Source: Gemmatimonadaceae bacterium
Lineage (GTDB): Bacteria; Gemmatimonadota; Gemmatimonadetes; Gemmatimonadales; Gemmatimonadaceae
Direction: 5' to 3'
DNA: 64,000 nt
Assembly (NCBI GenBank): GCA_035606695.1
Contig: DATNEW010000016.1
Span: 1-64,000, forward strand
In this document: one piece after another, positions 41,214 to 52,903 of the stretch
Position numbering within the stretch: the stretch's first letter is position 1
How the letters are laid out: each line of letters starts with the position of its first letter
Program-made: the position numbers and the translations under genes
Notes under the pieces: model-generated
Told to the model about the DNA's origin: nothing
Database searches by the model: none
Seen by the model: the letters and a program-made list of their open reading frames with translations, nothing else

Positions 41214-41250
41214 GCGCGCGTAGCTCGGTGTTCTCTGCTTGAACTTGTGA

Positions 41251-41283
41251 AACGGCCGCTCGTTCCGACGAGCGGCCGTTTTT
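41251..41283 (+). terminator. Rho-independent terminator after the TonB receptor
   Basis: A perfect 12-bp stem AACGGCCGCTCG pairs with CGAGCGGCCGTT around a six-base loop, followed by TTT. It ends the receptor transcript. Confidence 0.85.
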
Positions 41284-41284
41284 G

Positions 41285-41391
41285 CATCGTCCGGGCATCG
41301 TCCGCGCATCGCCCGCGCATCGCCCGCGCATCGCTCACGCGTCGCTCACGGAGCGCCAACGGACCGCACACGGACCGCACACGGACCGCTC
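41285..41391. repeat. Two 11-bp tandem arrays after the terminator
   Basis: Six degenerate copies of an 11-bp unit, CATCGCCCGCG (41285-41350), are followed by three copies of ACGGACCGCAC (41359-41391). The two units differ in sequence but share the 11-bp period. They occupy the 410-bp space (41214-41623) between the receptor and the first small peptide gene; the rest (about 41400-41610) holds no gene that I can support and may carry the peptide promoter. Confidence 0.8.
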
Positions 41392-41623
41392 ACGACGTCT
41401 GTTTAGGTTCTCCTCCGATCACGAGACGCTGAGCATCAGTGAACTCTCATGACGCGTTTTCGAGGTTTCGTATGGCCCTCGCACGGTCGATCCGGGGGCT
41501 CGGACGGCGGCGCACCGTGGTGCGTCCCGGCTGCTGAACGCCGCGTCGCGGTGCGGCCGCGCGTGACGGGCGCTCATCGGCGATTCACGGCACGTAGACA
41601 TTCCCTTTTTCGGAGGTAGTCCG

Positions 41624-41803
41624 TTGAAACGCTTCATCCTGAACGGGCTCGCGCTCGTCGTCATCGTCGGCGGCGCCAGTGAGCTCAAGGCACAGACCGA
41701 GATCTCCGCATGGCAGGCGTGCTGCTACGCGAAGATCACGAACGTGAAATGTTGCGGGGCAACCTGCGACGCCGGGTGGTTCCAGTGCAGCGCATCCACG
41801 TGA
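41624..41803 (+). CDS. Cys-rich secreted peptide, paralogue 1
   Basis: A 59-residue peptide started by TTG at 41624, with GGAGGT seven to twelve bases upstream. The Sec signal (MKRFILNGLALVVIVGGASE, then LKAQ) is followed by a ~35-residue mature part with six cysteines spaced CC-x8-CC-x3-C-x6-C and ending GWFQCSAST. The other two paralogues share the spacing exactly. It would be exported and folded by three disulfides. It is 33 bp from the next copy. No known family is recognised; bacteriocin, toxin, signalling or envelope roles are all possible. Confidence 0.78.
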   Translation: MKRFILNGLALVVIVGGASELKAQTEISAWQACCYAKITNVKCCGATCDAGWFQCSAST

Positions 41804-41836: not shown

Positions 41837-42019
41837 ATGAAGCGCATGATCATCAACGCCGTGGCCACGCTGGTCGTGGTCGGCGGCGGCGCCGCTCGTC
41901 TCATGGCGCAGTCGGAGATCCTCCCGCCCGCGTGCTGCCACACGGTGTTCACCAGCGCCACCTGCTGCGGCGACACGTGCGAGTCGGGTTGGTTCAACTG
42001 CTCCGCTCAATCGAAGTAA
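41837..42019 (+). CDS. Cys-rich secreted peptide, paralogue 2
   Basis: A 60-residue peptide. The signal peptide (MKRMIINAVATLVVVGGGAA, then RLMAQ) precedes mature SEILPPACC, CCGDTCESGWFNCSAQSK. Same six-Cys spacing as paralogue 1 and 3, with GWFNCSA identical to paralogue 3. Weak GGTGA lies about five bases before the ATG. It is 33 bp after paralogue 1 and 74 bp before paralogue 3, suggesting one transcript. Confidence 0.82.
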   Translation: MKRMIINAVATLVVVGGGAARLMAQSEILPPACCHTVFTSATCCGDTCESGWFNCSAQSK

Positions 42020-42033
42020 CACTCCATCCACCC

Positions 42034-42070
42034 GCCTTCGGTTCGCCGGCCCTGCGCCGGAAGCGAAGGC
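42034..42070 (+). promoter_or_regulatory. Hairpin between peptide genes 2 and 3
   Basis: GCCTTCG (42034-42040) pairs with CGAAGGC (42064-42070), and an inner CCGG pairs with CCGG, giving a stacked stem-loop in the 74-bp gap. The T-run after it is weak. It could stabilise or attenuate the transcript and set different amounts of the peptides, which is inference only. Confidence 0.45.
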
Positions 42071-42093
42071 TCTTTCATTCGTGAGGCTGACCC

Positions 42094-42276
42094 ATGAAGA
42101 AGCAGATCCTCATCAATACGCTCGCCGCCATGGTGATCTCGGTCGGCGCGTATCAGACCGCGCTCGCCGACGAGATTGCACCAACGCATCAGGCGTGTTG
42201 CAGCACGATCTTCACGAGCGCCGTCTGCTGCGGCAACTCGTGCTCGTCCGGCTGGTTCAACTGCTCGGCGACGTAA
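42094..42276 (+). CDS. Cys-rich secreted peptide, paralogue 3
   Basis: A 60-residue peptide. The signal (MKKQILINTLAAMVISVGAY, then QTALA) precedes DEIAPTHQACC and CCGNSCSSGWFNCSAT. Cys spacing is the same CC-x8-CC-x3-C-x6-C. GAGG lies 8-11 bases before the ATG. Signal peptides have diverged more than the Cys framework across the three copies, indicating selection on the mature peptide. A DsbA-like gene follows after 114 bp. Confidence 0.82.
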   Translation: MKKQILINTLAAMVISVGAYQTALADEIAPTHQACCSTIFTSAVCCGNSCSSGWFNCSAT

Positions 42277-42390
42277 TCGCCGGCTGATGCTTGACGGGCG
42301 GTGCGCCGAACGTGGCGCACCGCTCACGCCGCCGCCCACGCCACGCCACGCACACCACCCGAGCTCGTTCCCTTCATCTCATCGCTGTGG

Positions 42391-43125
42391 ATGCCTCTTA
42401 TGCCTCGATCGAACTTCGACCGTCTGTCCACCGCCTTCACCGCGGTGCTCGTCGCCTGCGCGCTGACCGTCACCGGCATGATGGTTCGCCGCGAATTCTT
42501 CCCGCCGGTGCGCGCCGCGGCGCCGGTCTCCCTTCCACCGCTCGACGTCTCCGCCCAGTGGGACGAGCTCACGTCGCACGGCACCGTCATCGGCTCGCCG
42601 TCGGCGCCAATTCGCGTCGTTGAATTCTCCGACTTTCAATGCCCCTTCTGCGCGAGCGTCCAAAGCACGCTGCGCACCTTGCGCCAGCGGAATCCGTCGC
42701 GCGTGGCCATCGTGTTTCGCAACTATCCGCTGTCGAACATCCACCCCTTTGCCCGTCAGGCGGCCACCGCCGCGGCCTGCGCCAACGAGCAACTGCGCTT
42801 CGAGGCCTACCACGACAAGCTGTTCGCCCAACAGGATTCCATCGGCATCAAGCCGTGGGCACAATTCGCGAAAGAGGCCGGCGTTCCCGACCTGCGCGCG
42901 TTCGAGACGTGCGTCGGGCGCGCCCCGTTTGACGCCGACGTGCAGCGCGACGTACAATTGGGTCAACGCATCGGTGTGAGTGGGACACCGACGATCGTCG
43001 TGCAAGGCCAAATGCTCCGGGCCGCACCAACGCTCGAGACGATCGAAAAGATGATGGCGGCCGAAGCGCCCGCGGCGAAGCGTGTGTCGGCTGTACCGGT
43101 CGCGGCTGTACCGCCGCGGAACTAA
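42391..43125 (+). CDS. Membrane-anchored DsbA-like thiol oxidoreductase (thioredoxin fold)
   Basis: A 244-residue protein with one N-terminal helix (about residues 14-32) as anchor or uncleaved signal. The thioredoxin-fold domain has FSDFQCPFCASVQ with the active site CPFC (84-87), NYPLSNIHPFARQAATAAAC and the cis-Pro loop GVSGTPTIVV. It is of the DsbA/DsbG-like Thioredoxin_4 type, facing the periplasm. The ATG at 42400 is an alternative start. Directly downstream of three Cys-rich peptide genes, it is a plausible disulfide catalyst for them. The ADOP permease follows after 28 bp. Confidence 0.85.
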   Translation: MPLMPRSNFDRLSTAFTAVLVACALTVTGMMVRREFFPPVRAAAPVSLPPLDVSAQWDELTSHGTVIGSPSAPIRVVEFSDFQCPFCASVQSTLRTLRQRNPSRVAIVFRNYPLSNIHPFARQAATAAACANEQLRFEAYHDKLFAQQDSIGIKPWAQFAKEAGVPDLRAFETCVGRAPFDADVQRDVQLGQRIGVSGTPTIVVQGQMLRAAPTLETIEKMMAAEAPAAKRVSAVPVAAVPPRN

Positions 43126-43153
43126 GGCATCGCCAACTCGGAGCCGGCAGAAC

Positions 43154-45565
43154 ATGATGCGCAGCGTCTACGACGATTTCCGCCTCGCGATCCGTCTGAT
43201 GATGAAGTCGCCGGGATTCAGCCTCGTGGCGATCTTCTCGCTGGCGATTGGAATCGGAGCCAATCTCACGGTGTTCTCGCTGGCCAACGGCCTGTTGTTG
43301 CGCACGTTGCCGGTGCGCGATCCCGCGACCGTCATCGAGATCTATGAAACGACGGGCGGCGATTATCGGCCGCTCTCGTACCCCGACCTCGCGCAGTACC
43401 GAACGGCACGCTCGCTGCGCGGGGTCGCGGCATATAGCGTCACGAATTTCGCTGTCGGAAGCGGCGCCGCGACACAACTCCACGCCGGCGCCTTCGTCGA
43501 CAGCAATTACTTCGCGCTGCTCGGCGTGGCGCCGATCGCCGGCCGCGATGTGCTCGGCAACAGCGAGCTGACACAGACGATGATCAGCACGCGCTTGGCT
43601 CGCGAGCTGTTCGGCACGGTCGATCGCGCGGTCGGAAGTTCGGTCACGGTCAACGGACGCGTGTTGAGCATCGGCGGCGTGCTGTCGCCCAAGTTCCAGC
43701 CGATCTTCGGGCTCTCGACGGATATCTTCGTGCCGCTCAGATCGAGAGCGACGCTCGAACCGGCGGCGCCACGGCTCGACGATTTCCTCGCGACGGGAAT
43801 GCAGGCCGTGGCTCGCACCACATCGAACGATGCGGGCCGAGTCGAGCACGAGCTCAATCTGATCGCCAAGCAACTCGACGCCAGCGCTCCGCGGCCGGGA
43901 CGCACGGCGCTGCCGCGGCGCATTCGCGTCGCGCAAGCGAGCGTGCTCGCACCGGGAGCGCGCGTCCCACTGACGGTGATCGCGCTGCTGATGTTCGTGG
44001 TGACGGGCCTCGTGCTGCTTCTGGCGTGCACCAACCTCGCGAATCTCCTGCTGTCGCGTGCGTCGGCTCGCCGGCGCGAGCTTGCGGTCCGCGCGGCGCT
44101 CGGTGCAACGCAGGCGCGCATCGTCCGCCAGCTCGTCTTCGAAGCCTTGGTGCTCGCGATGGCCGCGGGAGTCGCCGCCGTCCTTCTGGCGAACGCCGCG
44201 ACGGTAGGACTGCTCGCGCTCCTCCCGTCGGCGCCGTCGGGCCTGCTCGTGCCCGTGACGCCCGACGCGCGCATCATTCCCGCCGCCACGCTGTTCGCGG
44301 GCGTCGCCGCGCTGCTCTTCAGTCTCGGACCCGCGTTGAGCGCGACGCGCTACGATCTCGTCAGCGGACTCAAAGACTCGGGCGCCGGCTCGGGAATCAC
44401 CATTGGACAGATTCGTAATCGCCGGCGCCTGGTCGGCGTACAAGTTGGCATCACGACGGTGTTGCTCGTCACCGCGGGGTTGTTCGTGCGCAGTCTCGGC
44501 GCCGCTCGCGGGATGGACGCCGGCTTCGCCGCGGAGCGCGTCCTGTTGGCGACCGTCGACGTCAGTCGCCGCTTCCCGACTCCCGACGCGGGACGTCGCG
44601 CGTATGACGAGTTGCTGACACGGCTTCGTTCAGACGATGGCGTGCGAGATGCGTCGATCGTGCAGCGCGTCCCGCTCGACTTCGGCAATCAGGCGACCGT
44701 CTTTGCGGCCGCGGGTGGCGCTCCGATGGTGCGTCATGGCGCGGCGGATTGCAACATCGTCGGCACGCACTACTTCGCGACGATGGGGATTCCACTGCGC
44801 GCCGGGCGGGACTTCTCATCGGACGGCGGCGCGAACGAGGTAATCGTGAACGAAACGCTCGCGCGCAAATTCTTCCCACAGGGCGCGATCGGAAATCGTA
44901 TCGCCGTGCGCGGCGACGAGACCAGGTGGCTCGAGATCGTCGGCGTGGCGCGCGACGGCAAGTACCGCACGCTGACCGAAGCGCCGCAGCCGTTCATCTA
45001 TCTGCCGCACGCCGGCTCCTACGCCGGCGAGATGACCGTCGCGATCGCGACGCGCGGCGATGCGCGGAGCGCGCTCGCACTGCTTCGTGGCGCGGTGACT
45101 CGCGTCGATGCGAACATTCCCGTGTACCAGGTACGAACGGCCGACGATCATCTGCGCGCGGCACTGTTTCCGGCGCGCATGGCGGGCATTCTCCTCGGCA
45201 CGCTTGGCTCGTTGACGCTGGTGTTGGCGGCACTCGGTATTTACGGTGTCATGTCGTACGGCACACAGTTGCGCCGTGCCGAGATTGGTTTGCGGATGGC
45301 GCTGGGCGGTGAGGCGCAGGATGTGATGCTGCTCGTGGTGCGACAGGGAATGGCGCCGGTGGGATTCGGTATGGCGGCCGGTGTCGTGCTCGCCCTCCTG
45401 GTATCGCGCGGCATTCACGGTTTCCTCTACGGCATCACACCGATGGACCCGATTACATATGCCGGCGTCGCGGCGGTGATCGTCGTCACCGCGGTGCTTG
45501 CGTGTCTTCTGCCGGCGTGGCGTGCAACACGCATGTCGCCGTCCGTGGTGTTCCGCGAGGCGTAG
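43154..45565 (+). CDS. ADOP-type (MacB-like) orphan ABC permease
   Basis: An 803-residue permease of the acidobacterial duplicated orphan permease family. It opens with FRLAIRLMMKSPGFSLVAIF and the first helix SLAIGIGANLTVFSLANGLL, followed by a MacB periplasmic domain, three FtsX helices, a second periplasmic domain and three more helices ending PAWRATRMSPSVVFREA. FtsX/MacB proteins transmit ATPase strokes to export peptides or lipoproteins, but ADOP genes lack their own ATPase. A family that moves peptides or antibiotics next to the peptide cluster is suggestive. A terminator follows. Confidence 0.85.
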   Translation: MMRSVYDDFRLAIRLMMKSPGFSLVAIFSLAIGIGANLTVFSLANGLLLRTLPVRDPATVIEIYETTGGDYRPLSYPDLAQYRTARSLRGVAAYSVTNFAVGSGAATQLHAGAFVDSNYFALLGVAPIAGRDVLGNSELTQTMISTRLARELFGTVDRAVGSSVTVNGRVLSIGGVLSPKFQPIFGLSTDIFVPLRSRATLEPAAPRLDDFLATGMQAVARTTSNDAGRVEHELNLIAKQLDASAPRPGRTALPRRIRVAQASVLAPGARVPLTVIALLMFVVTGLVLLLACTNLANLLLSRASARRRELAVRAALGATQARIVRQLVFEALVLAMAAGVAAVLLANAATVGLLALLPSAPSGLLVPVTPDARIIPAATLFAGVAALLFSLGPALSATRYDLVSGLKDSGAGSGITIGQIRNRRRLVGVQVGITTVLLVTAGLFVRSLGAARGMDAGFAAERVLLATVDVSRRFPTPDAGRRAYDELLTRLRSDDGVRDASIVQRVPLDFGNQATVFAAAGGAPMVRHGAADCNIVGTHYFATMGIPLRAGRDFSSDGGANEVIVNETLARKFFPQGAIGNRIAVRGDETRWLEIVGVARDGKYRTLTEAPQPFIYLPHAGSYAGEMTVAIATRGDARSALALLRGAVTRVDANIPVYQVRTADDHLRAALFPARMAGILLGTLGSLTLVLAALGIYGVMSYGTQLRRAEIGLRMALGGEAQDVMLLVVRQGMAPVGFGMAAGVVLALLVSRGIHGFLYGITPMDPITYAGVAAVIVVTAVLACLLPAWRATRMSPSVVFREA

Positions 45566-45613: not shown

Positions 45614-45642
45614 GGCCCGCCGCTCTATCGGCGGGCCTTTTT
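45614..45642 (+). terminator. Rho-independent terminator after the ADOP gene
   Basis: Stem GGCCCGCCG pairs with CGGCGGGCC around a six-base loop, followed by TTTTT. It closes the peptide-DsbA-permease stretch, which has no other clear terminator inside, consistent with one transcription unit. Confidence 0.85.
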
Positions 45643-51625: not shown

Positions 51626-52903
51626 TTACTTCCCGACCGTCGCTCCGGTGAGCAGCGCCACAGCCGCAAGCGTCGTTTCCGCCGCATTGAGCCCCAGGCG
51701 GAAATCCTTGTCACTGTACGTGGCAAACACGTCGCTCGGCTGATGCCAGTTCGGGTCCCACCCCGCACCGATCTGCGAGCCGCGCTCGTTCTCGCGCAGA
51801 CTGATCGCCGGAACGAGGTCCTTGAACGGGTCCGAATCCGTGTTCGTCATGTGCGGGCCGACGTTCGCCGGATAATCCGTCGCGTAATGCTCGTTCGCAC
51901 GGCGGAAGAACCACGCGAGATCCGCCGACGCTTGCGCCATCTTCGACGTCGATGCGAATTCGATGTTGACGTCGGCTTCGCGACGCTGCTCCGGATTCAA
52001 CTTGCCGTCGGGACCGGGCATGCCGTGATCCCACATCATCATGTCATGCTGGATCATGCCGAGCCATTTGGGCTCGGGGTATTTGCCGGAGCCCGCCGGG
52101 CTCTCTTTCCCCTGCAGCGCCTGGCGCTGATCGACGTACGCATGCGCGCCGTTCAATCCGGTTTCCTCATTGTTCCATAACACGAAACGAATCGAGCGAT
52201 CCGTCTTCACGTCCGGGCTGCTGAATACACGCGCCAGCTCCATCACGAGCGCGGTACCGGAGCCATCGTCGTTCGCCGCCTCGTTCCAACCATGACCGTC
52301 CATGTGGCCGCCGACGATGTACATCTCGTTCGGATGCACGCTGCCGACCTTCGTGCAATACACTTCCTGACGCTCGCCATCCGTCGCCGGCTCGGCGTCG
52401 ATGGCGCGAATGTGCGCATCCGGCTGCCGCAGGGAATCCGTGTTCACGCCGGTCTGCGTGCGCGTTCCGAAGATGCGGCTGCCGCCCTGCCCGTTCGTCG
52501 GGCCCTCGCTGACGACGGTGCCCGGCGGCCGCGGTGCGCCGCGGCCGCCGCCCGCGCCGCCACGACCACCGCGCCCCGCGCCACCGCGCGGCGGCGGCGT
52601 GTGGTAGTCATACGTGATCCGCTCCGTGTTCGTGCAGCCGTAGCTCTTCAGCTGCGCTTCGATCCAGTCGACGGCATCGCGGTTTCGCTTCGTGCCCTGC
52701 CGGCGATCGCCAAACTGCGTCAGGCCTTTGACGGTCGCCTTGTAGTTCTCGAGCGTGAGCCGCGAAACCATCGTGCGGACGTCGAGGTTCGTCGTTGTGT
52801 CGGCAAACGCCGAGATGCTCGCTACGGGAGTCGCTTGCCCGAGCGCCGCCGCGGCGGGAACCGCCGCCAGTGCGCACGAGGCGAGAAGAAGTGTCGGTCG
52901 CAT
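51626..52903 (-). CDS. M28 family metallopeptidase, secreted
   Basis: A 425-residue exported aminopeptidase/carboxypeptidase. Signal peptide MRPTLLLASCALAAVPAAAA. An Arg/Gly-rich loop (about residues 105-130, GGAGRGGRGGAGGGRGAPR) is inserted ahead of the catalytic core. Zinc ligands appear in VGGHMDGHGWNEAANDDGSG (His, Asp), NNEETGLNGA (Glu) and, later, HMTNTDSDPF and DPNWHQPSD (Asp, His). This is the two-zinc M28 set. The ATG at 52903 begins the signal. It heads the operon with GH3 and GH29. Confidence 0.87.
   Translation of the reverse strand: MRPTLLLASCALAAVPAAAALGQATPVASISAFADTTTNLDVRTMVSRLTLENYKATVKGLTQFGDRRQGTKRNRDAVDWIEAQLKSYGCTNTERITYDYHTPPPRGGAGRGGRGGAGGGRGAPRPPGTVVSEGPTNGQGGSRIFGTRTQTGVNTDSLRQPDAHIRAIDAEPATDGERQEVYCTKVGSVHPNEMYIVGGHMDGHGWNEAANDDGSGTALVMELARVFSSPDVKTDRSIRFVLWNNEETGLNGAHAYVDQRQALQGKESPAGSGKYPEPKWLGMIQHDMMMWDHGMPGPDGKLNPEQRREADVNIEFASTSKMAQASADLAWFFRRANEHYATDYPANVGPHMTNTDSDPFKDLVPAISLRENERGSQIGAGWDPNWHQPSDVFATYSDKDFRLGLNAAETTLAAVALLTGATVGK

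What the first reader, a model, noticed from the sequence alone, without database searches (positions are those of the whole stretch)
42391..45565. Thiol oxidoreductase and MacB-like permease follow the Cys-rich peptides
A CPFC DsbA-like protein starts 114 bp after the third peptide, and an ADOP permease starts 28 bp after that, ending at a clean terminator; no terminator lies between the peptides and the end of the permease except a weak hairpin at 42034. This suggests a peptide-folding-export unit. ADOP permeases normally lack a known substrate, so a peptide substrate would be new.
Basis: inference. Interest (0 to 1): 0.7.

Follow-up and report, generated by a model that had tools for sequence, protein, structure and literature searches.

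The report
Dedicated folding enzyme for cysteine-rich peptides
This bacterium encodes three tiny secreted peptides held together by sulphur bridges next to their own bridge-forming enzyme, a pairing that recurs with many unrelated peptides across the whole phylum, whereas the membrane pump beside them is present in only a few cases.

Summary
The peptide-oxidoreductase link is real and goes far beyond this locus. In 115 loci fetched across Gemmatimonadota by similarity to the oxidoreductase alone, small signal-peptide-bearing ORFs with at least 4 Cys are massed beside it: 40 lie within 250 bp upstream on the same strand, against none in 79 DsbA loci of other phyla. The linked enzymes form one clade: 83 of 110 members have an even-Cys peptide, 12 of 107 outside. 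Cysteine counts are even in 68 of 75. The peptides are acidic and hypervariable (81 spacings among 87).

The permease link is weak. Homologous peptides lie beside the enzyme in at least 10 loci without an ADOP. ADOPs are numerous in this genome (at least 67), and a sister genome has a different ADOP in this interval without peptides. Still, ADOPs follow the enzyme in five loci, more than expected (0.2-1.0).

Best reading: an accessory cassette making disulfide-bonded secreted peptides with a dedicated oxidoreductase; export by the ADOP is possible but unsupported.

The parts
41250..41281 (+). Strong intrinsic terminator (14-bp stem, then TTTTTG) that ends the upstream outer-membrane protein gene; left border of the unit
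41624..41803 (+). Cys-rich secreted peptide 1 (59 aa, TTG start with GGAGG upstream; signal peptide, then a 36-aa six-Cys domain CC-x8-CC-x3-C-x6-C)
   Evidence: ORF and alignment; profile hit
41837..42019 (+). Cys-rich secreted peptide 2 (60 aa)
   Evidence: purifying selection relative to peptide 3
42033..42071 (+). Hairpin between peptides 2 and 3, followed by CTCTTTC; not a clear terminator
42094..42276 (+). Cys-rich secreted peptide 3 (60 aa); the mature 35-residue domain is predicted as an all-beta mini-protein (mean pLDDT 81)
42298..42323 (+). Perfect 10-bp stem-loop without T-run between the last peptide and the oxidoreductase gene
   Evidence: comparable stems at the same junction in L038 and L076, but not enriched over other gaps
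42391..43125 (+). Membrane-anchored DsbA-like thiol oxidoreductase (CPFC, Thr-cis-Pro, extra Cys130/Cys174; member of the peptide-linked clade)
   Evidence: Pfam, alignments, clade test
43154..45565 (+). ADOP-family duplicated MacB-like permease without ATPase; role in the unit uncertain
45614..45637 (+). Intrinsic terminator (9 GC pairs, TTTTT); right border

Best explanation
The locus is an accessory cassette that makes secreted disulfide-bonded peptides. Three tandem paralogous precursors are exported by the Sec system (inferred from their signal peptides). An inner-membrane-anchored DsbA-like enzyme encoded next to them forms or corrects their three disulfides in the periplasm (inferred from phylum-wide gene linkage, even Cys counts and the CxxC/cis-Pro active site). 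The enzyme is probably re-oxidised by the VKOR-type proteins found elsewhere in the genome (inferred). The mature ~35-residue mini-proteins then act outside the cell or at its surface, most likely in interactions between bacteria (inferred; weakest step). The ADOP permease is probably a member of a large mobile paralogous family that settled here; in this locus it may or may not help release the peptides.
For: In 115 DsbA loci chosen without regard to peptides, small ORFs with signal peptide and at least 4 Cys pile up beside the enzyme on the same strand: 40 within 250 bp upstream and 14 within 250 bp downstream, thinning to about ten per kb, both strands and sides together, at 4-5 kb; 86 of 115 loci have one within 1.6 kb. 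Control: 79 DsbA loci of other phyla have none within 250 bp upstream. Linked enzymes form a clade (support 93): 83 of 110 with an even-Cys peptide, 12 of 107 outside, p 7e-23. Even Cys in 68 of 75 mature peptides. The window peptides' own subfamily (CC..CC..C..C) recurs beside the enzyme in at least 10 other loci. Purifying selection between window copies. Confident AF2 model. VKOR in the genome. Sister genomes lack the cassette at the syntenic site.
Against: No biochemical or transcript data. Two homologous peptides (L250 in G059, L269 in G061) have no such enzyme nearby. About a quarter of the enzyme clade has no detected peptide. A hairpin separates peptides and enzyme. The Thr-cis-Pro could mean isomerase rather than oxidase. 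Extracellular action is not shown, and the peptides are mostly acidic (mean net charge -3.2), unlike typical cationic antimicrobial peptides.
Confidence: 0.72

Rival explanations
1. Peptide folding-export unit: the ADOP permease removes the folded peptides from the periplasm, as MacB-family pumps do for a heat-stable enterotoxin of E. coli, and the peptide is its substrate.
For: 28-nt gap and shared terminator. ADOPs lie same-strand downstream within 1.25 kb of the enzyme in five loci (window, L064, L105, L050, L047) against 0.2-1.0 expected. In L105 peptide, a 341-aa protein, a 218-aa protein, enzyme and ADOP are in one direction, with 4-bp overlaps between the last four. L038 and L056 have a membrane-fusion/TolC/RND-like set downstream instead. 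Precedent: MacB-family pumps secrete small toxins (PMC8277102).
Against: ADOP absent from most peptide-enzyme loci. Linked ADOPs are not orthologous to this one. At least 67 ADOPs in the genome. A different ADOP sits in the same interval in G312 without peptides. No ATPase or membrane-fusion gene adjacent, and ADOPs lack an ATPase domain.
Confidence: 0.25
2. The ADOP is a bystander: a member of a mobile paralogous family that inserts at many places, with no relation to the peptides.
Against: The excess of ADOPs immediately downstream on the same strand and the compact gene order in L105.
Confidence: 0.5
3. The cysteines serve as metal ligands or a thiol pool (metallothionein-like), and the enzyme keeps them reduced.
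For: CC-CC pairs can bind metals; the profile of the enzyme also reaches copper-resistance DsbA-like proteins in the PDB (ScsC type).
Against: Strong even-number bias of Cys, hypervariable spacing, few His (mean 0.85 per peptide), export to an oxidising compartment, DsbA/BdbD as best structural relatives.
Confidence: 0.1
4. The small ORFs are chance reading frames.
For: Short; peptide 1 uses a TTG start and was not called by the simple gene finder.
Against: Three paralogues in a row, homologues in other families of the class, conserved Cys and dN below dS.
Confidence: 0.02

Closest known systems
Sublancin/glycocin operon of Bacillus subtilis SPbeta (SunA with BdbA/BdbB)
   Same: Secreted Cys-rich peptide encoded beside dedicated thiol-disulfide oxidoreductases
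   Different: Glycosylated, leader-peptide bacteriocin with its own peptidase-ABC exporter and immunity gene (PMC6391423 for the immunity protein, otherwise general knowledge); here Sec signal peptides, no glycosyltransferase, hypervariable peptides, Gram-negative phylum
E. coli heat-stable enterotoxin II with DsbA and MacAB-TolC
   Same: Sec-exported disulfide peptide, periplasmic oxidation (own knowledge), release by a MacB-family pump (PMC8277102)
   Different: There the pump and DsbA are housekeeping genes elsewhere and MacB carries an ATPase; here an ATPase-less ADOP is adjacent and unproven. No sequence relation was tested
DsbA / BdbD-type thioredoxin-fold oxidoreductases (PF13462, PF01323)
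   Same: CxxC, cis-Pro, fold family by profile; best solved relatives 4pwp (DsbA) and BdbD 3eu3
   Different: Conserved N-terminal anchor with a VRREFF-like motif and genetic link to Cys-rich peptides
ADOP family duplicated permease (TIGR03434)
   Same: Full-length match over the curated cut-off
   Different: Nothing; ordinary divergent member, low-scoring within its own genome
Bacterial CS-alpha-beta defensin-like peptides
   Same: One peptide beside a paralogous enzyme in the same genome (L048:8321-8542) weakly matches Toxin_3/Gamma-thionin (E 0.006)
   Different: The window peptides have a different framework (CC-CC-C-C) and no match

Membership tests
DsbA-like thiol oxidoreductase | Thioredoxin_4/DSBA profile above the curated cut-off | tested here: met
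   87.6 bits against 23.2 and 66.7 against 25.6
DsbA-like thiol oxidoreductase | CxxC and cis-Pro active site | tested here: met
   C84-P-F-C87 in the window protein; C84, C87, T199 and P200 invariant in the alignment
DsbA-like thiol oxidoreductase | Oxidase rather than isomerase activity | not testable with these tools
   needs a biochemical assay
ADOP (TIGR03434) | Score over the curated cut-off along the full length | tested here: met
   667.2 against 622.3, positions 2-802 of 803
ADOP (TIGR03434) | No adjacent ABC ATPase gene | tested here: met
   gene map of 37-48 kb
MacAB-TolC type exporter | ATPase plus membrane fusion partner | tested here: not met
   neither is adjacent; PF12704 and FtsX domains only
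Disulfide-rich secreted peptide | Signal peptide, small size, even number of Cys | tested here: met
   six Cys each; hydrophobicity-based signal peptide test; parity across the group
Disulfide-rich secreted peptide | Formed disulfides | not testable with these tools
   needs mass spectrometry
NVEALA or other catalogued small Cys peptide families | Profile match in Pfam or NCBIfam | tested here: not met
   no match for P0001-P0003 or six other linked peptides above any cut-off
Bacteriocin | Killing activity and immunity gene | not testable with these tools
   no known defence family among the five proteins and no evident immunity gene on the gene map; activity untested

The most novel reading that the evidence does not exclude
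Gemmatimonadota carry an undescribed, phylum-wide repertoire of hypervariable acidic disulfide-rich secreted peptides, each made by a cassette with its own membrane-anchored DsbA and combined with interchangeable companions (beta-propeller-like proteins, Oar-like TonB-dependent outer-membrane proteins, RND sets, ADOP permeases) that export or recognise the peptide; here the ADOP would be the first of its family with a defined substrate.
Probability: 0.25. Interest if true: 0.85.

Novelty: new variant of a known kind. Interest (0 to 1): 0.6.

Why it matters
It gives a sequence-based handle (the anchored DsbA clade) for finding many uncatalogued disulfide-rich peptides in a poorly cultured soil phylum; Pfam, NCBIfam and the literature searched hold no family for those checked. 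It makes testable what they do and whether ATPase-less ADOP permeases or Oar-like outer-membrane proteins move them.

Tried and rejected
NVEALA family: no profile match for the window peptides or six other linked peptides, and no paper holding the term among those listed. Anti-phage defence: no PADLOC match. A dedicated ADOP subfamily: linked ADOPs do not group with the window ADOP, and the nearest relatives of two of them are unlinked. A special junction hairpin as a general feature: 3 of 32 peptide-enzyme gaps against 8 of 149 other gaps, p 0.41. Typical cationic antimicrobial peptides: the group is acidic. PDB fold match for the mature peptide: none. PDB sequence match for the peptide family: none. 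First genome-collection scan with the peptides: no relatives.

Full report
What is there. The window lies on contig C16 of a 5.9-Mb genome (G000). Its phylum is read as Gemmatimonadota because a contig of a genome in the same-phylum sample (G151:C82) equals a named Gemmatimonadetes record (L170). Between a strong terminator at 41250-41281 and another at 45614-45637 lie three small ORFs (59, 60 and 60 aa), a 244-aa DsbA-like protein and an 803-aa ADOP permease, all on the + strand. The peptides share a signal-peptide-like N terminus and a ~35-residue domain with six invariant cysteines, CC-x8-CCG-x2-C-x2-GWF-x-C. They match no Pfam or NCBIfam model.

Peptide-oxidoreductase link. Searching 395 genomes of the phylum with the peptides gave only a handful of relatives. 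The best of them, in G179, is one peptide followed by a close relative of the oxidoreductase and no ADOP. I then searched with the oxidoreductase alone, took about 115 loci with flanks and looked for small ORFs with a signal-peptide-like start and at least four later cysteines. They pile up beside the enzyme: on the same strand 40 lie within 250 bp upstream and 14 within 250 bp downstream; a further group lies 1.0-1.5 kb upstream, in several loci with a beta-propeller-like gene in between; further out there are far fewer. The same procedure on 79 DsbA loci of other phyla gave none within 250 bp upstream on the same strand. In a tree of 217 enzymes one clade of 110 (support 93) holds 83 peptide-linked members; outside it 12 of 107 score, most by chance-looking ORFs. 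Members typically start with an anchor ending in a VRREFF-like motif, and C84, C87, C130, C174, T199 and P200 are invariant in a representative alignment. The peptides themselves are mostly unrelated: 81 cysteine spacings among 87. Yet cysteine number is even in 68 of 75, against 35 of 54 among background candidates. Even numbers are what paired disulfides would give.

The window's own peptide subfamily. A wider alignment defines a CC-CC-C-C group, with two more cysteines in one family of the class. A profile search finds it in 16 genomes. In at least ten loci besides the window it lies beside the enzyme, several times as tandem copies. L251 runs off its contig before the expected place of the enzyme, and two (L250, L269) appear to be orphans. 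None of the strong loci other than the window has an ADOP adjacent; a weak member in G199 (L064) does. In arrays such as L043 the signal part is more conserved than the cysteine domain, while in the window dN is below dS throughout. AlphaFold2 folds the mature domain as a small all-beta protein, mean pLDDT 81, with no PDB match.

The permease. The genome holds at least 67 ADOPs, with about 159 first-look candidates, so an adjacent ADOP is cheap evidence. The nearest relatives of this one are 35-40% identical and not at DsbA loci; the nearest relatives of the ADOP at the C31 locus are likewise unlinked. In sister genomes the conserved upstream outer-membrane gene (75-80% identity) is followed directly by the counterpart of 51626-52903 (G254, G176); in G312 the same interval holds a different ADOP and no peptides. 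The cassette is therefore an accessory insertion at a site that ADOPs also use. Against this, ADOPs lie downstream on the same strand within 1.25 kb of the enzyme in five loci. About 0.2 is expected from the flanks and up to 1.0 from genome density (my estimate), giving Poisson p between 5e-6 and 0.004. L105 shows peptide, two further genes, enzyme and ADOP in one direction, with 4-bp overlaps between the last four. Oar-like TonB-dependent outer-membrane proteins are more frequent companions: 15 loci within 800 bp downstream. An Oar protein of Myxococcus is needed to secrete a protease (PMC6434023), so an outer-membrane route is an equally good guess for export.

Mechanism and standing. Shown: gene content, linkage, parity, clade, accessory nature. 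Inferred: Sec export, disulfide formation by the neighbouring enzyme, re-oxidation by VKOR (two genes in the genome; one sits beside another DsbA, L266, that has no peptide). Unknown: what the peptides do. Their variability and tandem copies recall peptides under recognition or competition, but they are mostly acidic and no immunity gene is evident. I found no description of such cassettes in the papers searched; absence there is weak evidence.

Limits. The signal-peptide test is a hydrophobicity rule, gene calls are from a simple script, related genomes are not independent, and the genome search scores a limited number of candidates per genome.

Noticed in passing
L048:8321-8542 (G000:C24:37320-37541): A secreted six-Cys peptide in the same genome, divergent from a DsbA paralogue, with a weak match to scorpion-toxin/gamma-thionin profiles (E 0.006); possible bacterial CS-alpha-beta defensin-like peptide.
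   Followed up: partly
L047:6320-6520 and L049:6410-6670 (G000:C31, C26): Two more eight-Cys secreted peptides beside DsbA paralogues in the same genome, so it carries at least four such cassettes.
   Followed up: partly
L066, L080 and about 15 other loci: Oar-like TonB-dependent outer-membrane proteins and short PDZ-domain proteins are frequent neighbours of the peptide-DsbA pair, the former mostly downstream on the same strand.
   Followed up: partly
L231, L238, L241 (myxobacteria): DsbA-like genes are preceded, 0.5-0.6 kb upstream on the same strand, by a related ~114-aa Cys-rich anchored protein (CLVHGDC..CVDPCEGDL.C motif), perhaps a separate DsbA-substrate pair.
   Followed up: no
window 41282-41400: Short degenerate repeats (CATCGCCCGCG, ACGGACCGCAC) just after the terminator, before the peptide genes.
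   Followed up: no
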